A stretch of 64,000 bases of DNA from a virus: positions 1 through 64,000 of IMG/VR virus record IMGVR_UViG_3300021406_000010. One strand, written 5' to 3'. The notes below the pieces were generated by a model that saw nothing but the letters and a program-made list of their open reading frames with translations, was not told the origin of the DNA and ran no database searches. Made by a program: the position numbers and the translations under genes. Shown one piece after another: positions 1-17,007 of this stretch. How positions within the stretch are numbered: the first letter of the stretch is position 1; each line of letters starts with the position of its first letter.

Positions 1-3000
1 CGGTAGCACTCGTGTCCGGTAGGGTGCTCGCCGGTCCCGCCACAGCAGCTGCACCCGCCGCAGTGCGCGTCGGCTGAGCCATCCAGGCCGCAGGCCAGGC
101 ATGACCCGTCCGTGGCTTCAGCGAAATCATGGGGGGCGTCCTGGGCGTCGCCCATCGTGCCGTCAATCCCGGCCTGCTGCCGCAACGCCTCGCCGGCCTC
201 CTGCGGGTCCTCCCCGGTGGTCGAGGGCAGCGCGGCCTCCGGCTCCTCGTGCAGCTCCGCGAGCGCCCCGCCCAGCTCGGGAATGCGCGGGTCCGACGGC
301 ACCGGCGTCCCGGAGCAGGTGACCGGCCAGGTGAGCGACTCCTCCATCCGGATGCCCTGCGGGTCGCGAGGGGTGATGGACGTCGAGGGGCCTCCGGCGA
401 GCACCTGGCCGCCATAGGGGAACGGCTCCTGCCACTCCTGGCCGCTCATGTCGTCGAGGGCGGCGACGTTGGACAGCGGCATCTGGAACACGCTGTCGTC
501 GATCTGGCCCCAGTTGTCCGGGTCGGGGGCGGCCAGCGGGCCGTAGGAGCCGGGGTCGGTGTCCTTGTCGGGCGGCGAGGTGGCCCCGTACGGCTTCTGC
601 GGCGGGTGCCTGCTGACGTTCTCGCTTCCCCACGGGGCGTTCGCCTGGTCAGCGGTAACCCTGCGGCCGTAGGCGTGCATGCCCTCCTCGTCGAAGGCCT
701 GCGCGCGGGACCATGCTCCCGGGCGGGGGGAGGCCGGCTGCCAGTGCGGGGAGCTGGCGTCGGGCGGCGGCGGGTTCGACTTGTCCAGCCCGTGGTTGAC
801 GTCCATGTCCCACCGGACGTCATGCGGGTTGAAGTACCGGTTCCACCCGGCGGAGGGGTGGACATTGTGGATGTTCAGGTGCGGGGCCGCGTCCTTGCCG
901 GCGAATCCCGCCCACCACCGGGCGCCCTGCCGGGTGCGCACCCCGTGGTTGACCCAGGCGTCATTGGATGCCGCGTGCCTGGTCAGCTCTCCCATCATCC
1001 TGGTGGCGACCCCCTGGCCGCGCGCCGCCCTGGCGGTGTGCAGCATGGAGACCCTGATGGCCCGCGCGTCGTCGGACTGCTGGAAGTGCAGGCTGCCCAG
1101 GGCGCGGCCGTCCTCGCCGGTGGCGATCACCGCGTGGGTCGGGGTGCTCATGGCGGGATTCGCGCGGGCGAGCCTGGCGCGCTCCTCGTGGGCGAGCTCG
1201 CTGACGCGCACGCTGTAGTCCCCGACTGGCCGCCGGGACCAGAGCCAGGCGGTGACCTGGCCGTCGCCGGGGAAATGGCAGTCCCCGGGGTGGCTGAAGG
1301 CGCATAGCCCGCCCTCGCCGTCGTCCCCCTCGTCGTCCTGGCCCGGGATGCCGGACGTCTTGCTGATGCTGGCGGACGGGGCCAGCCACTCCTGGCGCCA
1401 CCGGCCCGCGTGGGGCTCGCCCTCGTACGGCGGCCAGGATTTCACTACCACCTGGTGCGGAGCCTCAGTCGGCCCGGGGGTGACCTGCTGGCCGAACATG
1501 CCCCGCGACTGGGCCTCCAGCCGCACCGCGCACACGTGGGAGCACATCCGGCCCGCGTACCTCGTGCTTCCCTTCCGCTCGTTCTGGTGGTAGCTGGCCC
1601 ACGGGCAGCCGCAAATCCAGGCCATCACGTTGCGGTGGCCTGGGTAGGACTGGAAGCCGGACTCGTAGGTGGCGTGGTCGCCGCGCACCTCGCCGATCAC
1701 CGTGCCCGATGCCACGTGGGTGATCCGCACCGCGCCCTCGGCGCGCAGCCGCTTGGCCTTGTCCATCACGTCCCGCCAGGTGGCGGTCAGGTGGAACCGC
1801 ACCTCGGGATGGGCGGCGGCCACCTTGCGGCTGCGCCTGCCGTCCTGCGATCCCTGTGTGAAGGCCGGGCCGCCCTCGGTGACGGGGGCCTGCGCCATCG
1901 GCCAGGCGCGCGGCTCGCCCGCCTCGAGTGAGTCGCCCTCGTCGTCGTGCTCGTGCTGCCCTAGCCCGGCCACCGCGTTGTCGACCTGGTCCCGGAAGCC
2001 GCTGACCTCCTCCGGCGGGGCGTCCGGCCCCGGCACCCGGCCGGTGCCGTCCTTGGAGGAGGCGCGCAGCTGCTGGCCGTGCATCTCGTCCCACGGCCCC
2101 TCCTGCGACGGCACTTCCGCCACGTACGCGGGAACCTCCGGGGCGGCCTTCCCGGCGGCGGCGGCCAGCAGCCTCGCGATGGCCCGGTGGTGGCCGTCCC
2201 CGATCACCTTGCGGCCGTCGGGCAGCGCGACGACCAGCGCCGGCTTGCCGTTGCCCTCCTCCATGAACGCGGTGACGCGGCGGGGCTGGGAGCTGGCCGT
2301 CCAGTGCGCGCGGTCGCCCCAGTCGATCTCGTGCAGCGGCACCATCTGCGGGCCGGTGACGGCGGCGGCGCGGATCCACTCCAGCGCGGCGGGCGGGTAG
2401 TCGTCGGCCAGCTGGGCGACCAGCGCCTCCCGGGCGCCGCGCGAGGACAGGGTGTGGTGCACCCAGCGGTGCCTGCCCTGCTGGTGGTCCAGCAGCCCGG
2501 CGACGTCGGTCCACTCGCCGTTGGCGTATTCCTCCCGGGTGTCCTCCGGCTTCCCGGTCCGGTCCGGCCGGGTGGACAGCAGGTCGGCGGCCGGCATCTC
2601 GGGCCACCGCTCCTCCGGGTCCTCGGCCGCCTGCGCCTGGAACCCGGGCGGATCGCGGTCCTCGTCGGTGAAGCCCGGGGACGGCACGAAGTCCCCCCAG
2701 GTCATGGTTGGCACGTCGTGCCAGGAGTGCAGGGTACCGCGCTCGGCGGGCGTCCACGGCACGCGGGCGGTGAACGGGCCGATCGGCAGGCCGGGACCGC
2801 TGCCGGACGAGATGCCCTCCGGGTACATGCCGACGGTGGCCCCGTTGGCGTCCTCCTTGTCCTCCCCGTGCACCGGCTGGCTCCACCTGGGGTCGCCCTC
2901 CCCCTCGGTGGACCTCTCGTCGTAGGAGTCCGGCCCGGCCGCGCGGGGCACGGTGCCGTGCTGCGGGGCGTCGCCGTGGCCGTCCACGTGGGTGCCGTTG

Positions 3001-3593
3001 ATGTCGGTGGCATGGTGCCGCATTCCCATGAGGGCGGCGGCCTCCTCGATCTGCGCGAGCCGGGCCATCGCCGGCGGCATCTCCCACGGCGGCGGCGGGG
3101 CCTCCTCCTGCGGGCCGATGTTCTCGTGCACCCACTCCTGCTGGCCCGGCTCGGCCCAGTACACTCCGGCATCGCCCTCGCCGCCGTTATAGTTCTCGTC
3201 GCGGAGGTCCTCCGGCCGTCCCCAGGTGCTGTCGGCGGTCCTGCGGGACCCGATCACGGTGATGATCCCTCCCGGGTCGGGCCGGTCATGCAGGATGGTG
3301 CCCATCTCCGGGTACCAGTAAGAGGCCATTCGCGTGTCCAGCGAGTCATCTACCTCGTCCAGCGCGGCCGTCACCCCGGAGGGCAGCAGGCCCGGCGGGA
3401 CGCCCGCGTAGGGGGAGCGCACGGCGTCGGGCAGCGGGCGCAGCTGGCTGGCGGTGTAGGCGCCCTGGCCCATGCCGCCGTCGAGGACCACCTGGTACTC
3501 CTCGACGCCCGGCGCGAATGATCCCGACACGAACAGGACGCGGCCGGGGATGTTGTCGATCGTCATCACCCGCTGTCCGACCCTGAAGTCCAT
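1..3593 (-). CDS. Large multidomain phage protein (ParB-like, SWIM-type zinc, GNAT modules), 3' end beyond window
   Basis: An open minus-strand frame runs from ATG at 3593 (preceded by GGAGAGGAGG) to the left edge with no stop, about 1,197 residues visible. The N-terminal 55 residues look like a small beta-barrel. A ParB-like motif GDGHHRA lies near residue 466. Around residues 660-690, CGC followed by CSHVC fits a SWIM-type CxCxnCxH zinc site. Near residue 860, ARGQGVATRM fits the acetyl-CoA loop of a GNAT acetyltransferase. A Cys-rich patch (CLACG, CGGCSCC) sits near the left edge. The mix of unrelated modules joined by acidic linkers resembles the polyvalent proteins further right. Frame choice rests on sensible composition (W, Y, D, H) against Arg/Gly-rich alternatives. 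Confidence 0.8.
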   Translation of the reverse strand, partial: MDFRVGQRVMTIDNIPGRVLFVSGSFAPGVEEYQVVLDGGMGQGAYTASQLRPLPDAVRSPYAGVPPGLLPSGVTAALDEVDDSLDTRMASYWYPEMGTILHDRPDPGGIITVIGSRRTADSTWGRPEDLRDENYNGGEGDAGVYWAEPGQQEWVHENIGPQEEAPPPPWEMPPAMARLAQIEEAAALMGMRHHATDINGTHVDGHGDAPQHGTVPRAAGPDSYDERSTEGEGDPRWSQPVHGEDKEDANGATVGMYPEGISSGSGPGLPIGPFTARVPWTPAERGTLHSWHDVPTMTWGDFVPSPGFTDEDRDPPGFQAQAAEDPEERWPEMPAADLLSTRPDRTGKPEDTREEYANGEWTDVAGLLDHQQGRHRWVHHTLSSRGAREALVAQLADDYPPAALEWIRAAAVTGPQMVPLHEIDWGDRAHWTASSQPRRVTAFMEEGNGKPALVVALPDGRKVIGDGHHRAIARLLAAAAGKAAPEVPAYVAEVPSQEGPWDEMHGQQLRASSKDGTGRVPGPDAPPEEVSGFRDQVDNAVAGLGQHEHDDEGDSLEAGEPRAWPMAQAPVTEGGPAFTQGSQDGRRSRKVAAAHPEVRFHLTATWRDVMDKAKRLRAEGAVRITHVASGTVIGEVRGDHATYESGFQSYPGHRNVMAWICGCPWASYHQNERKGSTRYAGRMCSHVCAVRLEAQSRGMFGQQVTPGPTEAPHQVVVKSWPPYEGEPHAGRWRQEWLAPSASISKTSGIPGQDDEGDDGEGGLCAFSHPGDCHFPGDGQVTAWLWSRRPVGDYSVRVSELAHEERARLARANPAMSTPTHAVIATGEDGRALGSLHFQQSDDARAIRVSMLHTARAARGQGVATRMMGELTRHAASNDAWVNHGVRTRQGARWWAGFAGKDAAPHLNIHNVHPSAGWNRYFNPHDVRWDMDVNHGLDKSNPPPPDASSPHWQPASPRPGAWSRAQAFDEEGMHAYGRRVTADQANAPWGSENVSRHPPQKPYGATSPPDKDTDPGSYGPLAAPDPDNWGQIDDSVFQMPLSNVAALDDMSGQEWQEPFPYGGQVLAGGPSTSITPRDPQGIRMEESLTWPVTCSGTPVPSDPRIPELGGALAELHEEPEAALPSTTGEDPQEAGEALRQQAGIDGTMGDAQDAPHDFAEATDGSCLACGLDGSADAHCGGCSCCGGTGEHPTGHECY

Positions 3594-8816: not shown

Positions 8817-11108
8817 TCAGCCTCCCTGGGCCGGGGCGTAGCGCTCGTAGTCGCACAGCGCGTCCCCGTCTTCCGGGCGCACCCCCAGCCGGGCGCGGAT
8901 GCCCACGTGCGGCGGGTCGGCATAGGCGCGGATCGGGTCGCCGGACGTCCAGGACCCCTTCCCGTCCCGGGCCAGGGCCTCGGACTCGGGCAGGTGCTCG
9001 ACCGGTCCCGGGACGGGAAGGCCGGCGGCGCTCGCGGTGACCCGCAGCCCCTCGGCCTCCGCCTCGTCGACCGCCCGCGCCAGCCTGGCCACCTGTCGCA
9101 CCCGGGCGGACCGGCGGAACAGCGCCCCGGGCTGCGGCATGCCCCTGCGGGCGGCGCGGGGCATCCCGTCGCGCTCCTCGTCGGACTCCGGCGGGCGCTG
9201 CGGCTCGTCGCCGGGCGGCCCTTCCCCCTCCGGCGGCGGCCCCTCCGGGGGCGCGTTCGGGTCCATGCCCTCCTCCTGCGCCTGCTGGGCCTCCTCCATG
9301 TCGGCCGGGACCGGCGCGAGGTCGGGCAGCGGCAGCGGCTGCGCGCCCATCCGGTCGATCATCAGCTGCTGCGCCGCCATCGCGGGCGGCACCCCCTCGA
9401 CCTGCGCCATGGGGGCGAAGTCGGCCATCAGGTCGGCGGGGACGGGCAGCCCGGCGTCGCGCAGCGCGATGAACGCGGCCTTCCGGGTCTCCTGCTGGGC
9501 GATGATGTCGGCGACCGCCTCGTCCTGGCACGCCTGCCGCTCCTCGTCCAGGTCAATGCCCAGTCCCCGGGTGCGGGTGCGGGCCGAGATCGGGAGGCCG
9601 GACGCCCGCAGCGCCTCGGTGAACTGCCGGACGACGTCCTCGTCCCGGAAGTTGAGGACCTTGTACTCCGGCTCGGGGACCAGCAGCCTGGGCTGCTCGG
9701 TGATCCGCTGCTCGCCGGTCTCCTCGTCGGCCTCCAGGACCTCCTCCATGACCACGTACCGGCGGCCGTTGCGCTCCTCATAGTCGTAGTGCTCCTGGGC
9801 CTCGGCGACCACCAGTGCCCGCTGCCGGAAGTGCCGCGAGATGTAGCGCTGGTAGTGCGTCATCAGCTGCTCGACCAGCTGCTTGTTCAGGGCGTCGGCG
9901 GCGTACGTCTCGCCCTCTCCCGCGCCCTGCAGGAAGGTGCGGGAGAGGCCGAACACCTGCAGGATCCTGTCCTCGATCCGCTCGAAGTCGGCGGACAGGT
10001 CCGGCATGTTCTCCCGGCCGAACACCGGCTCGATGTCGACCGCGAAGTTGTGGATCAGGGCGCGGAAGTCGCCTGCCAGGGCCGCGTCGAGGGCCAATTC
10101 GAAGTTTTCGAGGTCATCGTCGGTGGGGATCCAGGGGACCTCGGTCCCGAGGTCGGTGGCGGAGGCGCCCAGCTTGCAGAGGATGAGGGGGGTGTACAGC
10201 CGGTCGGCGATCGAGTCCATCGCCGTGTTGAGCATCTCCTGCTGCAGCATGCTCCTCATGGCCCTGGTGAGCAGCGGCAGCCCCCGCAGGTTGAAGGTGT
10301 CGCCCTTGAACTTCAGCTGCCGCAGCAGGATGTTGCTCACCGGCATGAAGGCGTTCTCGGCGGTGTAGGCGGCCAGCTCCGGGTACTCCTGGACCAGCTT
10401 GTTGTACTCCCAGGCGGGCTGGCGGGTGGTGAGGACCTGTCGGATCGTCCACGGCAGCCGGATGAAGTAGCGCGGCTCCTTCAGGAACGGCGACCGCTCC
10501 ACCTTCACGTCGTCGGGGTTGAGCAGCTCCTCATCGTCCCATATGCCCAGGTCCTCATTGAATGTCGCGAATGGCCACGCCTCCCCAGCGGTGTAGTACT
10601 CCCTCCCCATGTCCACCGTGAACTCGTGGTAGTCGAGGTTGTCCTCGCCGAAGAAGTGGTCGGTGTAGAAGTCGGCGAGCCGGGAGTCCTTGCACTTCAG
10701 GCTCATCCCGAGGACCGGGAACTTGGAGAAGATGTCGACGCAGGAGCCGACGATGGGGTCGGTCTGGTAGAGCAGCCGGCAGAAGGCCCTGACCTTAGCG
10801 AGCTCCTCGTTCTGGCTGAAGTCATAGGGGAGGTTGTTCTGCCGCCAGTAGAACAGCGGGTCTCGCGGGCGCCCTGTGGCGAACTGGATGTCGGACCCGC
10901 CACCGCCGGAGGCCCCCGCCCCGCCGGCCAGCGCGGTGCGCCGGGCCAGCATCGCCGAGCGGGCGTTGGCCCGGCGGTTCTTTATCGCCTCCCGCACGTC
11001 GTCGGTCATCTTCGGCTGGCCGTCGGCGCCCATCCCGATGCCGATGGTGGCCCCCAGCTGCCCCGCTACCGATGCCTGCCGGGCGCCCGGCACGTACGCC
11101 ACCCTCAT
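8817..11108 (-). CDS. Portal protein
   Basis: 763 residues from ATG 11108 (after CGGGAGGCAACCGC). It would form the dodecameric ring at the capsid vertex through which DNA passes. Portal-like features are the early segment ending in YQTDPIVGSCVDIFSKF, the basic/aromatic middle with LRGLPLLTRAMRSMLQQE, and ERIEDRILQVFGLSRTFLQG near residue 390, typical of the clip/stem region of large portals. The last 200 residues are acidic and Pro-rich (PPEGPPPEGEGPPGDEP) and include VTASAAG, a possible processing site. The usual partner, terminase, lies about 52 kb away on the same strand. Confidence 0.85.
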   Translation of the reverse strand: MRVAYVPGARQASVAGQLGATIGIGMGADGQPKMTDDVREAIKNRRANARSAMLARRTALAGGAGASGGGGSDIQFATGRPRDPLFYWRQNNLPYDFSQNEELAKVRAFCRLLYQTDPIVGSCVDIFSKFPVLGMSLKCKDSRLADFYTDHFFGEDNLDYHEFTVDMGREYYTAGEAWPFATFNEDLGIWDDEELLNPDDVKVERSPFLKEPRYFIRLPWTIRQVLTTRQPAWEYNKLVQEYPELAAYTAENAFMPVSNILLRQLKFKGDTFNLRGLPLLTRAMRSMLQQEMLNTAMDSIADRLYTPLILCKLGASATDLGTEVPWIPTDDDLENFELALDAALAGDFRALIHNFAVDIEPVFGRENMPDLSADFERIEDRILQVFGLSRTFLQGAGEGETYAADALNKQLVEQLMTHYQRYISRHFRQRALVVAEAQEHYDYEERNGRRYVVMEEVLEADEETGEQRITEQPRLLVPEPEYKVLNFRDEDVVRQFTEALRASGLPISARTRTRGLGIDLDEERQACQDEAVADIIAQQETRKAAFIALRDAGLPVPADLMADFAPMAQVEGVPPAMAAQQLMIDRMGAQPLPLPDLAPVPADMEEAQQAQEEGMDPNAPPEGPPPEGEGPPGDEPQRPPESDEERDGMPRAARRGMPQPGALFRRSARVRQVARLARAVDEAEAEGLRVTASAAGLPVPGPVEHLPESEALARDGKGSWTSGDPIRAYADPPHVGIRARLGVRPEDGDALCDYERYAPAQGG

Positions 11109-11111
11109 GCG

Positions 11112-11135
11112 GTTGCCTCCCGCACCTTCCGGGGG
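11112..11135 (-). promoter_or_regulatory. Portal leader: CCCG-N7-CGGG stem next to the ribosome binding site
   Basis: On the minus strand CCCCCGGAAGGTGCGGGAGG precedes ATG 11108. CCCG can pair with CGGG across GAAGGTG, taking up part of the Shine-Dalgarno GGGAGG. Near-identical leaders precede the genes starting at 46292 and 62856. Confidence 0.5.
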
Positions 11136-11143
11136 TTGCAATC

Positions 11144-11166
11144 AATGCGGGATTTATTGCTATACT
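11144..11166 (+). promoter_or_regulatory. Bidirectional promoter element
   Basis: GGGATTTATTGCTATACT matches the window-wide element. TGC-TATACT ends six bases before ATG 11173, so the rightward transcript should be leaderless. The element also lies upstream of the divergent portal gene. Confidence 0.55.
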
Positions 11167-11172
11167 TCAGTC

Positions 11173-11688
11173 ATGCACGGCTGGGAGCCGACAAGGCAAG
11201 GAGGCTTCCGCCGTACCCGACCGGGGGTAGCTCAGAGTCCTAAGAGCGCTGCGCGGATCACGCAGAGGACGGTTCCTGGCAAGGGCCTCCCCGGACTAAT
11301 CTTCACCTGGCGCGAGCCGCTCGGGCTGCCGGGCTGCCCCTACGTCCTCCGCTGGAGGGCGGAGGCGCCCTTCGGGTCAGTGCGGGTCCACCACTGGCTG
11401 AAGGCCGACGATGACCGCGCCTTCCACGACCACCCCTGGTGGTTCCTCACCGTCGTGCTCCGGGGCGGCTACGCTGACCGGTCGCCGGCCGGGGACGACG
11501 TCCTGCGGGCCGGGTCCGTCCGGTTCCGTCGCGCCCTGCACCGGCACACGGTCGTCCCCGGCGGGGATGGCGCCTGGACCCTGGTCATCACCGGCCCCAG
11601 GGCCAGGCCATGGGGATTCTGGCGGAACGGCAGGTTCATCAAGGCGAACAAGTGGTTCGCCAGCTTCGGGCACCACCCGTGCGGGTAA
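11173..11688 (+). CDS. Cupin-like protein, paralog of the protein at 39905
   Basis: 171 residues. The core HDHPWWFLTVVLRGGY with HHW before it and WTLVITGPRARPWGFWR later matches the protein at 39905-40360 (HDHPWAFISLVLAGGY, WTLVITGPRRAEWGFWR). The closely spaced histidines suggest a metal-binding double-stranded beta-helix. Substrate unknown. The first 45 residues are encoded by a sequence that folds like a tRNA, and the start is a predicted leaderless ATG. The 3' third overlaps the antisense peptidase gene. Confidence 0.65.
   Translation: MHGWEPTRQGGFRRTRPGVAQSPKSAARITQRTVPGKGLPGLIFTWREPLGLPGCPYVLRWRAEAPFGSVRVHHWLKADDDRAFHDHPWWFLTVVLRGGYADRSPAGDDVLRAGSVRFRRALHRHTVVPGGDGAWTLVITGPRARPWGFWRNGRFIKANKWFASFGHHPCG
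11221..11295 (+). other. tRNA-like cloverleaf (Ile GAT-like), probably not a functional tRNA
   Basis: CCGGGGG (11221) pairs with TCCCCGG (11288), GCTC with GAGC in the D arm, CTGCG with CGCAG in the anticodon arm and GGTTC with GGGCC in the T arm. The seven-base loop CGGATCA puts GAT at the anticodon position. Against a working tRNA: U33 is replaced by G, the D loop lacks GG and the T loop is CTGGCAA rather than TTCRANN. It lies inside the cupin reading frame. Confidence 0.3.
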
Positions 11689-12216
11689 GAACCGTTCCCA
11701 GCCCCTGGTCAGGCACCATTCTTCCCAGTTGCTGGGCTGGACGGTGCGCTCGCGGCCCGGTGGCCGGGGAAGCCCCGCCTTGTCGTGACCGTAGGCGGCC
11801 AGCGCCGAGCACACCGTCTCCCCGCGCACCAGGCCGTGATCGGGCAGCCACAATTCCCCCAGGTGCAGGTCCTCGGCGGCGTCGGCGGCGATGGCCTCCC
11901 AGTCGTACCGGTCGCCCAGCATGCCGCGCATGGTGACGGTCACAAGGCGGCGCTGCTCATCCGTCTTCGGCTGCGCCGCGTTCGACGTGGTCCAGGAGGA
12001 GGCCAGGTAGGCCGCCAGGTCTACCCAGCCCACCCCGCCGGGACGGCCCTCGACGCCCCACAGGGTACCGTTCGCGTCCGCGTGGTCCGCGACGGCGACG
12101 TGGTTGGCGACGTTCGGCTTGTCCTCCAGCGCCTCGCCGAGGCGGATCATCTCCGCCGCCCATCCCGTGGTCCGCACTACCAGGACGTCACCGGGCTGCA
12201 CCGCGAGGGCGGTCAC
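11377..12216 (-). CDS. Papain-like (permuted NlpC/P60 or YiiX type) peptidase/amidase
   Basis: 279 residues. VQPGDVLVVRTTGWAAEMI, NHVAVADH, WGVEGRPGGVGWVD and GETVCSALAAYGHDKAGL fit the small papain-fold enzymes common in actinophages and streptomycetes; His in NHVAV and Cys in TVCSA are the likely catalytic residues. Possible roles are cell-wall cleavage or de-amidation. About 105 C-terminal residues are antisense to the cupin gene and Pro/Gly-rich, so the real protein may end near 11690 with a lost stop. Confidence 0.6.
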   Translation of the reverse strand: MTALAVQPGDVLVVRTTGWAAEMIRLGEALEDKPNVANHVAVADHADANGTLWGVEGRPGGVGWVDLAAYLASSWTTSNAAQPKTDEQRRLVTVTMRGMLGDRYDWEAIAADAAEDLHLGELWLPDHGLVRGETVCSALAAYGHDKAGLPRPPGRERTVQPSNWEEWCLTRGWERFLPARVVPEAGEPLVRLDEPAVPPESPWPGPGAGDDQGPGAIPAGDDRVPVQGATEPDGPGPQDVVPGRRPVSVAAPEHDGEEPPGVVVEGAVIVGLQPVVDPH

Positions 12217-12374
12217 GGAGACCCGCTGCCCTGGCCCGGCTGCCCGGTGCCCCCGGGCAGCGCCTTCAGGTCAGTGACGTTCCGGCACCCGTCGCACCTG
12301 ACCCAGGCGCACTGGGGGTTCTGGCAATGGTCAGTGACCTTCCTGGACCCGCAGGTGCCGCACTGCCTGTCCAT
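12213..12374 (-). CDS. Zinc-ribbon protein, 53 residues
   Basis: ATG 12374 after GAGGAGGGGCG. CGTC, HCQNPQC and CDGC give six cysteines in paired spacing, typical of a small zinc ribbon, followed by a Gly/Pro tail. It overlaps the start of the peptidase gene by four bases. Function unknown. Confidence 0.65.
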   Translation of the reverse strand: MDRQCGTCGSRKVTDHCQNPQCAWVRCDGCRNVTDLKALPGGTGQPGQGSGSP

Positions 12375-12404
12375 CGCCCCTCCTCTCGTGCTTCCCTGGC
12401 GGGA

Positions 12405-12449: not shown

Positions 12450-12914
12450 TCAGCCGTAGTGCCGGAAGTGGACGCTGTTCTTCTGGACGTCGCTCCACTG
12501 CGTGGCATAAACAGGGCCGAGGCCGTAGGGGTCGCCGCTCTCGGCGGCGCGCTGCATCTGGCCGCCCATGAACCTCACCACGTCGGGGTGCCGCAGTTCC
12601 CGCAGCGCCCTGTCCCCCACCTTCTCGTCGTCGTCTCCCAGGTCGGACCATCCCGTGGCGCCGGTGGGATCGCCCCCGTGATGCGCCATCATCGTCCAGC
12701 GGTTTCGCTCCGGGTCCAGGTGGAAGCCGAGCTTGTGCCCTGACTCCAGGTGCGCGTGATCGTCCGGCCAGTGCTCCTCGCCCGGGTACAGCCCCCGGCT
12801 CCGCAGGTCCTCCTGCACCCGGTGCGTGCGCGCCTGCAGCTCGCTGAACGGGATCGCCCAGTTCCCCCGGTGGCCCCGGTAGTGCGCCGGGTATGCGTTG
12901 TCGCGGTAGATCAT
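12450..12914 (-). CDS. E-x-G-H family protein, member 9 (154 residues)
   Basis: Contains LESGHKLGFHL, then WTMMAHHGGDPTG, SDLGDDDEKV and RHPDVVRFMGGQMQRAAESG. The same blocks in the same order occur in eight upstream neighbours. Start ATG 12914 after AAGGGACG. Last gene of the tandem array. Function unknown; conserved His, Glu and Trp could form an active or binding site. Confidence 0.7.
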   Translation of the reverse strand: MIYRDNAYPAHYRGHRGNWAIPFSELQARTHRVQEDLRSRGLYPGEEHWPDDHAHLESGHKLGFHLDPERNRWTMMAHHGGDPTGATGWSDLGDDDEKVGDRALRELRHPDVVRFMGGQMQRAAESGDPYGLGPVYATQWSDVQKNSVHFRHYG

Positions 12915-12923
12915 CGGCGTCCC

Positions 12924-13334
12924 TTAACCGTAGTGCCGGAAGGCGTGCGAGGGGTCCTGCTGCCACCTCTGGTCCATCGGGCTGGTGAGGCCATGCGGGT
13001 CCCCGGCCTCGGTCGCCCGCCGCCACTGGTCGCCCATGGCCTTCACCACGTCGCGGTGCCGCAGCTCAGCCTTCAGCCGCTCGGCGAACTGGCTGTCGTC
13101 AGCGCCGAGGTCAGACCTTATCCACGACCCGGTGGGGTCGCCGCCGTGACGGATTGAGAGGCTCCACCGCCTCTCGCCGGACTCCGGGTCCTGGTCGAGG
13201 GAGTAGTGGACATAGTGGCCGGACTCCAGCGGCCCGACCATCGGCCACCCGTCGCGCTCGGCCTCGGGGCTGAGGAGCCGGTGCCGGGCCAGCTGCCGCT
13301 TCACGTCGCTATAGCGCCCGGGGATTCCCGTCAC
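12924..13334 (-). CDS. E-x-G-H family protein, member 8 (136 residues)
   Basis: Has LESGHYVHYSL, WSLSIRHGGDPTG, SDLGADDSQF and RHRDVVKAMGDQWRRATEAG, closest to member 9; both end in FRHYG. GTG start overlaps the previous stop (GTGA). Probably a recent duplicate of its downstream neighbour. Confidence 0.7.
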   Translation of the reverse strand: MTGIPGRYSDVKRQLARHRLLSPEAERDGWPMVGPLESGHYVHYSLDQDPESGERRWSLSIRHGGDPTGSWIRSDLGADDSQFAERLKAELRHRDVVKAMGDQWRRATEAGDPHGLTSPMDQRWQQDPSHAFRHYG

Positions 13335-13834
13335 CGTTCCTCCCCGCTGCCCCGCAGCGCGACGCCCTCGGCGTCGTGGTGCACGTACTGCATGGTCCCC
13401 CGTCGCCTGCGCGGCCCCTGCTCACCCGTGCCCCGCATCTGCCCCGCCATCTCGCGGGTCACGTGACGGCAGCCCAGCTCCCGCTGCACCAGCCTGGGCA
13501 CCTCCTCATCGCGGGTGCCCAGGTTCACGTGCACCATAACCGGCGTGGCACGGTCGTCGCCGGGGTGCCAGACGTTCATCACCCACCCCTGGTCCTGGCG
13601 GGACAGCCCGACGCCCACGTGGTGCCCGGTCTCAAGATCGAAGCTCGGGGCGTCCACGGCGTAGCCATGGGAATCCCTGAAGTGCACCGGGAACCCGGCG
13701 GCGTGCATCTGGTCGCGGACGGACCGCAGCCGCCTGACCTGGTCGCGCTGGGTCAGGGAATCGCCGGGGAACAGCTTGTCGCTGCCCCGGAACCCGCCGT
13801 CATCGGACGCGAAGTGCCGGATCAGGTCATTCAC
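13331..13834 (-). CDS. E-x-G-H family protein, member 7 (167 residues)
   Basis: Begins MNDLIRHFASDD, the LIRHFA tag shared with members 4 and 6. Core LETGHHVGVGL, WVMNVWHPGDD, VNLGTRDEEV and CRHVTREMAGQM. Basic C-terminal tail. GTG start in a GTGA overlap. Confidence 0.7.
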   Translation of the reverse strand: MNDLIRHFASDDGGFRGSDKLFPGDSLTQRDQVRRLRSVRDQMHAAGFPVHFRDSHGYAVDAPSFDLETGHHVGVGLSRQDQGWVMNVWHPGDDRATPVMVHVNLGTRDEEVPRLVQRELGCRHVTREMAGQMRGTGEQGPRRRRGTMQYVHHDAEGVALRGSGEER

Positions 13835-14253
13835 CAGTCATCCTCATGAGAGCGGCGCTGGCCCCAGGGGTCATCGTCGGTGGCCAGGGGGCCACTCGAC
13901 CTGCGCACGTAGTCGAGGAACTCCGGGCTGCGGTAGCCTTCCGCGAGGCGGCGCGGGACGTCGGAGTCGACGGGGCCGAGGGGCATCCGGTACTCCATGC
14001 TGTCATCGCCGTTCACCCACCGGTCCTCCATGGGCCCGCGCGGCGGGGTGACGGCCGCCGCCCACTGGCCGAGGGCGTGATGCCAGGAAATGCCCGCCAG
14101 GTGGCCGCTCTCCATCGTCTGGCGGCGGGACAGCAGCCGCTGCCGCTTGACCTCGGCCAGGATCGCGTCCCGGCGCTCCTGGTGCTCGCGCATGCTTCCC
14201 GGTCGCCCGGACGCGGACGCGAAGTGCCGGATGAGGTCATCGCCGCGCGCCAT
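13831..14253 (-). CDS. E-x-G-H family protein, member 6 (140 residues)
   Basis: N-terminal DDLIRHFASASG, then MESGHLAGISW, WAAAVTPPRG and LGPVDSDVPRRLAEGYRSPEF. The most divergent member in its middle part, but block order is kept. TAATG overlap with the upstream gene. Confidence 0.65.
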   Translation of the reverse strand: MARGDDLIRHFASASGRPGSMREHQERRDAILAEVKRQRLLSRRQTMESGHLAGISWHHALGQWAAAVTPPRGPMEDRWVNGDDSMEYRMPLGPVDSDVPRRLAEGYRSPEFLDYVRRSSGPLATDDDPWGQRRSHEDDW

Positions 14254-14642
14254 TAGCCGTCCCTGAAGTCATGGAAGAAGTGACTGACGCCATGCCACTT
14301 CGACCGGGAGTGCAGGCGCTTGTCCCCTCGCGGGTCTCCCGCCCCGGCGGCGCGCTGCCATTGGTCCCCGAGGGCCCTCACGAAGGCGGGGCGGCGCAAC
14401 TGGTCCGCGACGCGGTCCGCCACCCCCTCGTCTTCCCGGCCGAGGTCCGCGATCACGGCGGACCCGCTGGGGTCGCCGGGATGCCAGGCCTGCATCTCCC
14501 AGCCGCCGCCCCACTTGCCGATGCCGTAGTTGTGGCCGGACTCCAGCTGGTTCAGGTCCGGGTCAGACGGGTGCTGGCGCCCGATCCCCTGGCCGCGCAG
14601 GTGCTGCAGGATCATGGCCTCCCTCGCCGGCTCGTCGCCCAT
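14253..14642 (-). CDS. E-x-G-H family protein, member 5 (129 residues)
   Basis: LESGHNYGIGKW, WEMQAWHPGDPSG, ADLGREDEGV and RRPAFVRALGDQWQRAAGAG: close to the family average. It lacks the LIRHFA tag. ATG 14642 overlaps the upstream stop (TAATG). Confidence 0.7.
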   Translation of the reverse strand: MGDEPAREAMILQHLRGQGIGRQHPSDPDLNQLESGHNYGIGKWGGGWEMQAWHPGDPSGSAVIADLGREDEGVADRVADQLRRPAFVRALGDQWQRAAGAGDPRGDKRLHSRSKWHGVSHFFHDFRDG

Positions 14643-15064
14643 TAGCCGAACCTCCTCGGCCAGGAGGGGTCGTCATCACGGGGATGCGCCATCTGCTCGC
14701 GCATCGCCCGCATGACGTCCCCGTGGCCGAGCCACTTCCTGGCCATGGCCCCGATGGCGTCCGGGTCACCGCCGAGGTCGGCCAGTATCACCCGGGGATT
14801 CCGGAATCGTGAAGGCCCCTCGCCTGTCCGCCCTATCGTGGGGTCCGGCTCGCGGGTCACCCACATGCGCCAGGTGCCGCGCTCGTGGTTGTAGGGGACG
14901 ATGATGTGGTGGCCGGTCTCGGTGCGCATCTCGTCCGACAGCCCGGCCGCGCGCAGCGAGGCGGCAGCCCGCTCGCGCCGGGCGTCCTCGCCGCCGGCGG
15001 CGAAGTGCCGGATGAGGTTCTCGCCGAACCACCCGTCGTCGGGAGGAACGCGTCCCCGTCCCAT
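14642..15064 (-). CDS. E-x-G-H family protein, member 4 (140 residues)
   Basis: GENLIRHFAAGGED near residue 15, then TETGHHIIVPY, WRMWVTREPDP, ADLGGDPDAI and GHGDVMRAMREQM. A 10-15-residue insertion follows the Trp block. Start ATG 15064 shares its A with the upstream TGA. Confidence 0.7.
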   Translation of the reverse strand: MGRGRVPPDDGWFGENLIRHFAAGGEDARRERAAASLRAAGLSDEMRTETGHHIIVPYNHERGTWRMWVTREPDPTIGRTGEGPSRFRNPRVILADLGGDPDAIGAMARKWLGHGDVMRAMREQMAHPRDDDPSWPRRFG

Positions 15065-15543
15065 CAGCGCTCCCCGTAGTGCGGGCCTGTCAGCCGCCTG
15101 CTGTGCAGCGCCGCGCCGCCATGGTCCACGACGCGCCCGTCCGGCTCGTCGCCGGACGGGTCGCCGTTGCCGAGCGCCCGCTTCCACTGGGCGGCTAGCC
15201 GCCCGACGACATTCGGGTGGGTCATGAAGTGCCGGAACCGGTCCGGCACCCGGGCGTCGTCCTCGCCCAGGTCGGAGGTGATCACCTCATTCGTCGGGTC
15301 TCCGGCGTGCGCAATGCTCACTTGCCAGCGGCGGGTATGCGAGTGCAGCCAAACGGAGAAGTTATGCCCCAACTCAGTACGGAACCCCTCAAGTCCTTCA
15401 GGGTAACCGCTGATGAGCCGCTGCCCGCGCAGGGCATCGTATACAGCGCTCTCGCGAGCAGCTCGCTCTCGGTTCGGGACACGGCCGGACGATCCAGAGA
15501 GCCTGTGCCTTTCCTCCTCGGGGGAGATATCCCACTCGCTCAC
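15064..15543 (-). CDS. E-x-G-H family protein, member 3 (159 residues)
   Basis: Charged N-terminal half, then TELGHNFSVWL, WQVSIAHAGDPT, SDLGEDDARV and THPNVVGRLAAQWKRALGNG. The family motif is E-L-G-H here, so the third residue varies. GTG start, 20 bases after the previous gene, with only a weak ribosome binding site. Confidence 0.7.
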   Translation of the reverse strand: MSEWDISPEEERHRLSGSSGRVPNRERAARESAVYDALRGQRLISGYPEGLEGFRTELGHNFSVWLHSHTRRWQVSIAHAGDPTNEVITSDLGEDDARVPDRFRHFMTHPNVVGRLAAQWKRALGNGDPSGDEPDGRVVDHGGAALHSRRLTGPHYGER

Positions 15544-15562
15544 CAGTCGCCCCGTACTCGCG

Positions 15563-15766
15563 TCAGCCCGCGTAGTAGGACGGGCTGCGCTTCCAGTCGC
15601 TGCGCGCCATGGTGCTCGCGTGGGCGGCGTCGCGGTGCCCGTCGTGGGCGGGCACGGTAATCACGTGGTTAGCCTGCTGCACCGTGACCATCGCCTCCTG
15701 GCCCGGCTCGATCGGCTCCCCGCATCCCGCGCAGGCGTGCTGGCTCTGGTTCCTGGCTGCTTCCAT
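15563..15766 (-). CDS. Possible separate zinc protein from an internal start (67 residues)
   Basis: In the same frame as the 272-residue gene, ATG 15766 follows a copy of the promoter element by seven bases. The product would be a self-contained module with CAGCGEPI, then H-x5-H (VPAHDGHRDAAH). Leaderless translation as at other element sites would yield it independently of the long protein. Confidence 0.35.
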   Translation of the reverse strand: MEAARNQSQHACAGCGEPIEPGQEAMVTVQQANHVITVPAHDGHRDAAHASTMARSDWKRSPSYYAG

Positions 15767-16381
15767 GGTCTTCATCTTAGCAAGGAAAGCTGTATCTTCG
15801 CGACCCGCCTCGCGGCGCAGCGCCGACAGCACCCGGGGATCATGACCGGAGGCGTGCGCGGCGAGGTGGCGGATGAGCTGGCCCTCGGTCAGCGGCTGGC
15901 CCTGCAGGCCCCGGTAGAGGGCGCCCTCCTTCTTGCCCTTCGGCGGCGGCTTCTTCTCGCCTTTGCCCTTCGGGAAGGGGGAGCCCTCGCTATCGTCATC
16001 GTCACCCGGCGACGGGGGCGCGCCCTCGCCGCCGGGACCAGCCTCCTCATCATCGCCAGGGGGCATGCCGCCTTCCTCGCCGCCTTCCTCCGGGGGCATG
16101 CCGCCGCCCACGGGCATCCCGTCCGGGCCGATCATGCCCGGATCCATGAGGCCGCCGTCGGGGCCGACGTCAGAAGGAGCGCCTGGGCCGCCGGGCATCT
16201 GGGGGGCGCCCGGGAAGGCCGGCTGGACGCGGACGATGTAGTTCTGTCCGCAGAAGGAGCACGCGATCGTCCCGTCACTCCTGCCCACCACTTGCCCTGA
16301 GCCGCAAAACGGACAATGAGACGTGATCAGGGGATCGCCTGGGTCGTGGGCCAACCTGGTGCCGATGCCACGTGCCGCCAT
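15563..16381 (-). CDS. Zinc-ribbon virion-type protein, 272 residues
   Basis: N-terminal CPFCGSGQ...CSFCGQNY is a four-Cys zinc ribbon, followed by a Pro/Gly/Met-rich acidic low-complexity stretch, a lysine-rich patch and LIRHLAAHASG, the tag also found in the E-x-G-H proteins. The ribbon followed by VRVQPAFPGAPQMPGG is seen in proteins near capsid genes of actinophages. A promoter-like element and a second zinc module lie inside the last 70 codons, so two products are possible. Confidence 0.65.
   Translation of the reverse strand: MAARGIGTRLAHDPGDPLITSHCPFCGSGQVVGRSDGTIACSFCGQNYIVRVQPAFPGAPQMPGGPGAPSDVGPDGGLMDPGMIGPDGMPVGGGMPPEEGGEEGGMPPGDDEEAGPGGEGAPPSPGDDDDSEGSPFPKGKGEKKPPPKGKKEGALYRGLQGQPLTEGQLIRHLAAHASGHDPRVLSALRREAGREDTAFLAKMKTMEAARNQSQHACAGCGEPIEPGQEAMVTVQQANHVITVPAHDGHRDAAHASTMARSDWKRSPSYYAG
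15774..15798 (-). promoter_or_regulatory. Promoter element inside a coding region
   Basis: The minus strand reads GATACAGCTTTCCTTGCTAA, matching the consensus through 18 of its core positions. Unlike most copies it lies inside a gene, where it encodes DTAFLAK. Confidence 0.5.
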
Positions 16382-16405
16382 GATGCCTCCTGGTCCTTCC
16401 GGGGA

Positions 16406-16699
16406 TCATGGCATCATGTCGCGCAGGCGCCGCATGATCCCCGGCTCGCACAGCTTCCGGCCTAGCACCCTCGCAACCGCGTCATCGTCATGGCCCAGGT
16501 GCAGGTGCACGACAAGGTCGCGGCCAGGCCAGGTGATGTTGGCCCACCACCACTCGTGCCGGGGATCCCTGCGGCCATGACCCATCCCGACCTGCACGTG
16601 GTGGCCGGACTCCAGCTTCTGCCGCTGGCTGGTGATCCCGGCCGCCAGGATCGAGTCCCACACGCGCACTAGCCGGGCCATGTCGCCGTCCCTGGTCAC
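16406..16699 (-). CDS. E-x-G-H family protein, member 2 (97 residues)
   Basis: Short form: LESGHHVQVGM, WWWANITWPG, LHLGHDDDAV and CEPGIMRRLRDMM. It lacks the C-terminal GDP-rich extension of members 3, 5, 8 and 9. GTG start in a GTGA overlap. Confidence 0.7.
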   Translation of the reverse strand: MTRDGDMARLVRVWDSILAAGITSQRQKLESGHHVQVGMGHGRRDPRHEWWWANITWPGRDLVVHLHLGHDDDAVARVLGRKLCEPGIMRRLRDMMP

Positions 16700-17007
16700 G
16701 CCATCAGCCTCCGCATCGCCCTCATCGTGCCCGGCTCGGACAGCAGCCGGGCCAGCTCGGCGGCCACCTGCCCGTCATCACGGCCCAGGAACAGGGTGAC
16801 CACCCCCTCGCGGTCCTGGTGGGTGACGTTCACCCACCAGGACCATGCCTGGGGGCCGTCCGGCCCGGGGCTGAGGAAGACCTGCAGGTGGTGGCCGGAC
16901 TCGGTGCGCATCGACGGGCCGCACAGCCCGGCGGCCACGACCGAGCCCCAGACAGCCCAGACCCTGAGCAGCGTGCGCGCGTAGAAGGCGTGGTCGCTCC
17001 AGCTCAT
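16696..17007 (-). CDS. E-x-G-H family protein, member 1 (103 residues)
   Basis: TESGHHLQVFL, WSWWVNVTHQD, LFLGRDDGQV and SEPGTMRAMRRLM. Closest to member 2. ATG 17007 overlaps the upstream stop (ATGA). First member in transcription order. Confidence 0.7.
   Translation of the reverse strand: MSWSDHAFYARTLLRVWAVWGSVVAAGLCGPSMRTESGHHLQVFLSPGPDGPQAWSWWVNVTHQDREGVVTLFLGRDDGQVAAELARLLSEPGTMRAMRRLMA

What the first reader, a model, noticed from the sequence alone, without database searches (positions are those of the whole stretch)
12450..17007. Nine tandem paralogs with an E-x-G-H motif: an undescribed family
Nine overlapping minus-strand genes (97-167 residues) share, in order, E-[STL]-GH, a Trp-containing strand often followed by HPGDP-T, an LG-x-DD segment and a C-terminal helix (VVRxMGxQWxRA). 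They are too diverged to be recent copies, yet all keep the GH. Such amplification beside structural genes suggests diversified virion decoration, antigenic variation or a family of anti-defence proteins.
Basis: seen in the sequence. Interest (0 to 1): 0.85.

Follow-up and report, generated by a model that had tools for sequence, protein, structure and literature searches.

The report
Shuffled phage gene array beside portal
A large soil phage, probably of actinobacteria, carries nine diverged copies of a small, previously uncatalogued protein domain next to its portal gene. The copies are swapped and lost between near-identical phages, and the evidence best fits a set of fast-changing proteins packed into the phage head to act on the host.

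Summary
Nine minus-strand genes form one family: each is found by a profile of the other eight (E 3e-9 to 5e-29). G-H is invariant in all 67 unique domains collected. Correction: the array is split by a 272-aa zinc-ribbon gene (15563-16381) that belongs to the story.

The family matches nothing in Pfam, NCBIfam, PHROGs or PDB sequences. It was found only upstream of the portal gene in uncultured, cluster-C-like myoviruses, in 2-10 copies. Two AlphaFold models agree on one compact alpha-beta3-alpha2 fold without a confident PDB match.

Two near-identical relatives differ mainly inside the array: lost, replaced and fused genes, two as natural chimeras with the seam at a shared N-terminal LIRHFA(S/A) codon block. 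That tag resembles the N-terminus of the phage's own head-maturation protease. The zinc-ribbon protein is the conserved partner just upstream of the portal. In relatives it carries one or three of these domains, or polyvalent-protein effector domains (ADP-ribosyltransferases, acetyltransferases, ParB-like).

Most likely: head-packaged, injected, rapidly diversifying effectors or defence inhibitors, analogous to T4 internal proteins but made from one repeated domain. Virion location and targets are inferred.

The parts
12450..12914 (-). W1, family member, 154 aa; modelled by AlphaFold2 (pLDDT 83)
12924..13334 (-). W2, family member, 136 aa; truncated in near-identical phage L013, with a different paralog next to it
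13331..13834 (-). W3, family member, 167 aa, N-terminal tag LIRHFAS
13831..14253 (-). W4, family member, 140 aa, N-terminal tag LIRHFAS; missing from L013
14253..14642 (-). W5, family member, 129 aa
14642..15064 (-). W6, family member, about 140 aa from the ATG at 15064, N-terminal tag LIRHFAA
15064..15543 (-). W7, family member, 159 aa; fused in frame to W6 in L013
15563..16381 (-). Zinc-ribbon gene, 272 aa: ribbon, Pro/Gly-rich acidic linker, LTEGQLIRHLAAHASGHDPRVLSALR segment, second CxxC region; the conserved gene upstream of portal in relatives
16406..16699 (-). W8, family member, 97 aa, minimal domain; AlphaFold2 pLDDT 91
16696..17007 (-). W9, family member, 103 aa
17004..17396 (-). Possible small helical protein overlapping W9 by 4 nt, probably first gene of the operon; unassigned
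11690..12216 (-). Conserved part (175 aa) of the ORF between array and portal, no firm assignment
8817..11141 (-). Portal protein (phrog_2833, E 2.6e-136), next structural gene downstream

Best explanation
The nine genes encode a rapidly shuffled set of small head-cargo proteins. They are made late, on the same strand as the portal, protease and capsid genes. They are brought into the assembling head either by their own N-terminal hR(K/R/H)(F/Y/Q)A(S/A) tag or through the neighbouring zinc-ribbon protein, and released into the host with the DNA. There each subfamily would bind a different host or defence protein. The invariant Gly-His and Leu-Gly are read as fold-defining rather than catalytic, because their possible catalytic partners (E57, H79) are not strictly kept. 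Shown: the family, its fold prediction, its fixed place, its modular link to the zinc-ribbon protein, and the shuffling. Inferred: late expression, packaging, injection and anti-host action.
For: (1) Found only upstream of portal in the relatives; no other place in the virus records searched. (2) The zinc-ribbon gene in the array is the conserved gene just upstream of portal in the relatives; more than 80 viral loci carry the ribbon. In relatives its C-terminus carries one of these domains, or three in one 1,227-aa protein that also has an intein-like insert. (3) In L051 and L070 the same ribbon lies near the C-terminus of 1,550- to 1,580-aa proteins with ART-PolyVal and Arr-type ADP-ribosyltransferase domains, or three GNATs plus a ParB-like domain. 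Such 'polyvalent proteins' of phages are predicted to be packaged and injected (PMC5512222). In Rhodococcus phage E3 the large gene at this place (gp70) is annotated 'structural protein' and contains a weak GNAT match. (4) The motif [LIVM]R[KRH][YFQ]A[AST] occurs 5 times in 212 called genes (0.29 expected): W3, W4, W6, the N-terminus of the head-maturation protease, and one other. Most protease homologs begin with a (L/V/I)RKYA(S/T)-type stretch. A related tag is present in 16 of 61 N-terminal regions of the family versus 2% background. (5) Near-identical phages L012 and L013 differ by loss, truncation, replacement and fusion inside the array. Two chimeric genes (W6 start + W4 body; W4 start + W3 body) have their seam at the tag. 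Against L013, dS is 0.3-0.57 in W3, W5, W7 versus 0-0.014 in W8, W9 and the zinc-ribbon gene, and 0.11 in portal.
Against: No proteomic or functional data exist for any member. Six of nine members in the window lack the tag. The tag pattern was defined after seeing the data, and the sequences counted are related. The polyvalent fusions are in relatives that lack this domain, so that link runs through the zinc-ribbon protein only. dN/dS is below 1, so positive selection is not shown. E3 gp70 lacks the zinc ribbon by our profile.
Confidence: 0.45

Rival explanations
1. Minor structural or decoration proteins: the domains sit on the portal, neck or capsid surface as interchangeable accessory subunits, and variability reflects host-surface or environmental adaptation.
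For: Position beside portal; near-neutral pI for most members; small single-domain proteins; absent in some relatives, so dispensable.
Against: Decoration proteins are usually single genes with a constant capsid-binding face (general knowledge); here up to ten diverged paralogs coexist, some fused to a zinc-ribbon protein with a long probably disordered linker.
Confidence: 0.2
2. Assembly chaperones or adaptors for the zinc-ribbon protein or other late proteins, not themselves effectors; each paralog serves a different client.
Against: The Z-scores are within the range the tool gives for unrelated folds, and the second model ranks other folds first. No matching set of diversified clients was seen; the zinc ribbon itself is strongly conserved.
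Confidence: 0.13
3. Intracellular inhibitors of host defence or host functions that act during infection and are never packaged.
For: Fast turnover and allele replacement typical of host-conflict genes; six of nine lack the tag.
Against: Position next to portal, and the tag shared with the head protease, argue for a virion link.
Confidence: 0.15
4. Recombination by-product: a duplicating module maintained by unequal crossing-over with no selected diversity.
For: Seams at repeated tag DNA; truncated W2 and fused genes in L013.
Against: Open frames, strict Gly-His and Leu-Gly conservation across subfamilies, dN/dS below 1.
Confidence: 0.07

Closest known systems
T4-type internal (injected) proteins Ip1, Ip2, Ip3 (PMC12373910)
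   Same: Small variable proteins, several per phage, with a shared N-terminal signal; the T4 ones block specific type IV restriction enzymes.
   Different: T4 Ip1-3 are described as apparently non-homologous to each other; here one domain family is repeated nine times, sits beside portal, and is linked to a zinc-ribbon protein. Packaging is not shown here.
Phage polyvalent proteins (Iyer et al. 2017, PMC5512222)
   Same: Modular effector sets encoded among virion genes; in relatives the zinc-ribbon partner is fused to ART, GNAT and ParB-like domains.
   Different: In this phage the modules are separate small genes of one family without a recognised enzymatic domain, not one large multi-domain protein (except three copies in one protein in L061).
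Rhodococcus phage E3 gp70-gp72 and Bxz1-like (Ceeclamvirinae) portal regions
   Same: Homologous portal (about 35-38% identity) and a large protein upstream of it.
   Different: No member of this family and no matching zinc-ribbon protein found in E3 or Skog; no match to the ribbon in the phage collection.
dsRBD-like / ribosome hibernation factor (HPF/RaiA) folds and T7 Gp1.2
   Same: Three-stranded sheet with packing helices; weak structural matches (Z about 4.5-5.3).
   Different: Scores are at noise level; the family has an acidic LGxDD segment where dsRBDs have a basic KKxAK (general knowledge), and near-neutral pI for most members.

Membership tests
T4-type internal head proteins | Several small variable genes per phage | tested here: met
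   Nine in the window, 2-10 in relatives, allele replacement between near-identical phages
T4-type internal head proteins | Common N-terminal packaging signal on every member | tested here: inconclusive
   LIRHFA(S/A) on 3 of 9; related tag on 16 of 61 N-terminal regions; similar to head protease N-terminus
T4-type internal head proteins | Present inside virions and injected | not testable with these tools
   No proteome held
T4-type internal head proteins | Sequence homology to T4 Ips | not tested
   No direct comparison made; PHROGs gave no consistent family
Polyvalent proteins | Multi-domain protein with recognised effector domains | tested here: not met
   Members are single-domain with no known effector domain; only the zinc-ribbon homologs in L051 and L070 qualify
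Polyvalent proteins | Encoded among virion genes | tested here: met
   Upstream of portal; protease and major head protein on the same strand
dsRNA-binding domain / HPF fold | Confident structural match | tested here: inconclusive
   Foldseek best E 0.069; VIA-align Z about 4.5-5.3
Type III secretion class I chaperone fold | Confident structural match | tested here: inconclusive
   SchA Z 5.3, ExsC Z 5.0 with rmsd 3.2-3.6 over about 90 residues
Known defence families in PADLOC | Profile match across members | tested here: not met
   One of 65 members matched RT_UG5_small at 1.1e-4; none of 20 representatives did

The most novel reading that the evidence does not exclude
A head-packaged effector system in which one small domain family is multiplied into a tandem array beside the portal gene. 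New effectors are created by homologous recombination at the DNA of a shared packaging tag, so that the targeting signal is also the shuffling seam. A conserved zinc-ribbon protein serves as a docking platform that accepts either these domains or enzymatic effectors.
Probability: 0.25. Interest if true: 0.85.

Novelty: new variant of a known kind. Interest (0 to 1): 0.6.

Why it matters
If right, it gives actinobacterial phages a counterpart of the T4 internal proteins and points to an unsampled set of host-directed proteins in uncultured soil phages. The conserved zinc-ribbon gene upstream of portal, and its terminal RHLA-type segment, give a search handle for variable head cargo in this whole phage group, and the natural chimeras show how such a set diversifies.

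Tried and rejected
Known families: Pfam, PHROGs, NCBIfam and PDB sequence searches gave nothing consistent. Cellular homologs: about 700 actinobacterial genomes gave only marginal matches; those inspected were a short spurious ORF and proteins reading LESGDHFSYRRDRTTGRLAGYVW, which lack the Gly-His. Isolated phages and plasmids: no significant tblastn match for W1 or W2 in phages, or for W1 in plasmids. Similarity to the W-rich C-terminus of Skog gp150, noticed by eye, was not supported by profile. Metal or catalytic site E57-H60-H79-D82: considered and set aside because only G59-H60 are invariant. A dsRBD reading of E-x-G-H as the E-x-GPxH RNA-binding motif: set aside because the motif lies before the first long strand in the models and most members are near-neutral. 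Positive selection: not seen. PADLOC single match: not reproduced in 20 representatives. The structure searches listed no enzyme or phage decoration family with a trustworthy score, which does not exclude one.
Full report
What is there. The window is the first 64 kb of a 166,488-base virus record, 71% G+C. On the minus strand, upstream of a clear portal gene (phrog_2833, E 2.6e-136), lie nine genes of 97-167 aa. A profile of the nine finds exactly these nine in the whole record. In leave-one-out tests every gene is found by the other eight at E 3.3e-9 to 4.8e-29, while the best non-array ORF scores 0.03-0.7. So the family is real and not a product of composition. A 272-aa zinc-ribbon gene at 15563-16381 splits the array between members 8 and 7. 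Most other junctions are 4-nt or 1-nt overlaps, as expected for a coupled operon.

Relatives. The portal protein brought 60 distinct loci from uncultured viruses. Named phages with a related portal, at about 35-38% identity, are large actinobacterial phages such as Rhodococcus phage E3, Gordonia phage Skog and Bxz1-like mycobacteriophages. Family members were found upstream of portal in about 18 relatives. In whole-record searches they were nowhere else in those genomes, and were absent from E3, Skog and several relatives with 71-76% identical portals. Eighty-four domains, 67 of them unique, were collected; Gly-His is invariant in all 67 and Leu-Gly nearly so. The tree gives about ten supported subfamilies, in different combinations in different phages, which is birth and death rather than one fixed set. 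No cellular, plasmid or isolated-phage homolog was found.

Structure. Two AlphaFold2 models, for W1 (pLDDT 83) and the minimal W8 (pLDDT 91), agree on helix, three-stranded sheet, two helices. Foldseek gave no match below E 0.001. VIA-align gave Z 5-6 to type III secretion chaperones, LptE, CapZ, HPF and T7 Gp1.2, which its own notes say may mean only a common arrangement. I draw no function from the fold. The Gly-His sits at the start of the first long strand. Because E57 and H79 are not strictly kept, a catalytic site is unlikely.

The zinc-ribbon partner. The ribbon sequence (AHDPGDxxITSHCPFCGSGQVVGRSDGTIxCxFCG) is the most conserved feature upstream of portal in this phage group: more than 80 viral loci carry it. 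After an acidic Pro/Gly-rich linker nearly all end in, or contain, a segment of the type yRT-G-LtEdxYxRHLA-dPxVLaxlR. In several relatives one domain of the new family follows that segment in the same protein. In L061 three domains follow it in a single 1,227-aa protein, which also carries an intein-like insert with a LAGLIDADG match. In more distant L051 and L070 the ribbon instead lies near the C-terminus of 1,550- to 1,580-aa proteins with ART-PolyVal and Arr ADP-ribosyltransferase domains, or GNAT and ParB-like domains. These are domain classes of phage polyvalent proteins, which are predicted to be packaged and injected (PMC5512222). The large gene at this place in phage E3 is annotated as structural protein.

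The tag. W3, W4 and W6 begin with LIRHFA(S/A) within their first 25 residues. In relatives, members often begin MGxxDLIRRQAA, DLLRKRAAS, EAVRRAAS and the like: 16 of 61 distinct N-terminal regions against 2% of other genes and 0.17 expected in shuffles. The stricter pattern [LIVM]R[KRH][YFQ]A[AST] occurs five times in 212 called genes of this genome where 0.29 is expected. Three of these are W3, W4 and W6 and one is residue 2 of the head-maturation protease (LLRKQAS), most of whose homologs begin with an RKYA(S/T)-type stretch. The zinc-ribbon protein of the same phage has QLIRHLAA. These patterns were chosen after inspection and the sequences are related, so the numbers are descriptive. The simplest reading is a head-targeting or head-protease-processing signal, comparable to the N-terminal signal of T4 internal proteins (PMC12373910).

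Shuffling. L012 and L013 have portals 99% identical to the window's, yet their arrays differ. L012 carries a chimera of the W6 start and W4 body and lacks W5. L013 carries a chimera of the W4 start and W3 body, a W7-W6 in-frame fusion, a truncated W2, a different paralog beside it, and one additional family gene next to portal. Both chimeric seams fall on the tag codons, where W3 and W4 share 27 nt at 96% identity. Between L013 and the window, dS is 0-0.014 in W8, W9 and the zinc-ribbon gene and 0 in three genes beyond portal, 0.11 in portal, but 0.57, 0.52 and 0.32 in W7, W5 and W3. This is a local hypervariable island produced by recombination. dN/dS there is 0.4-0.5 in those three genes against 0.04 in portal, which is relaxed or mildly diversified but not positive selection.

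Verdict. The best-supported mechanism is variable head cargo acting on the host after injection (0.45). Virion location, injection and targets are inferred. It may work like T4 internal proteins and polyvalent proteins but cannot be filed as a member of either.

Noticed in passing
L012:1657-1735 and L014:7481-7556: The zinc-ribbon frame is broken at both Cys knuckles by 5-8 nt inserts that start TTA(A/G) right after a TGT codon; GTTTA(A/G) occurs nowhere else in these two loci, and the protein between the inserts is conserved. A collection scan for the first-knuckle form found only these two contigs. Pseudogene, endonuclease scar or programmed hop: unresolved.
   Followed up: partly
L061:6225-10019; also L038, L055, L062, L065: The zinc-ribbon gene is split by intein-like inserts at or near the same HC/PFCGSG site; L061 matches LAGLIDADG_3. 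Portal genes of L057, L058 and L061 are also longer by what may be inteins.
   Followed up: partly
window 10876-11688 (+): Plus-strand ORF matching phrog_4786 (cysteine dioxygenase, E 5e-34) inserted in reverse between the array and portal, antisense to the tail of the 279-aa minus ORF; L013 has an extra family gene near this place.
   Followed up: partly
L155 (NZ_SSBL01000019.1) and L156 (NZ_MULI01000008.1): About 153- and 157-kb contigs of two Streptomyces isolates carry the zinc-ribbon/portal module, suggesting extrachromosomal or carried phage genomes and Streptomyces as a host of the wider group.
   Followed up: partly
window 3-3593 (-): 1,197-aa same-strand protein with weak ParB-like and phrog_2940 matches, possibly another polyvalent-type protein.
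   Followed up: no
window 12213-12377 (-): Small protein with CxxC pairs (MDRQCGTCGSRKVTDHCQNPQCAWVRCDGC) between the array and the 279-aa ORF.
   Followed up: no
one member of alignment A2 (not identified): A single family member matched PADLOC RT_UG5_small at E 1.1e-4; not seen in 20 representatives.
   Followed up: partly
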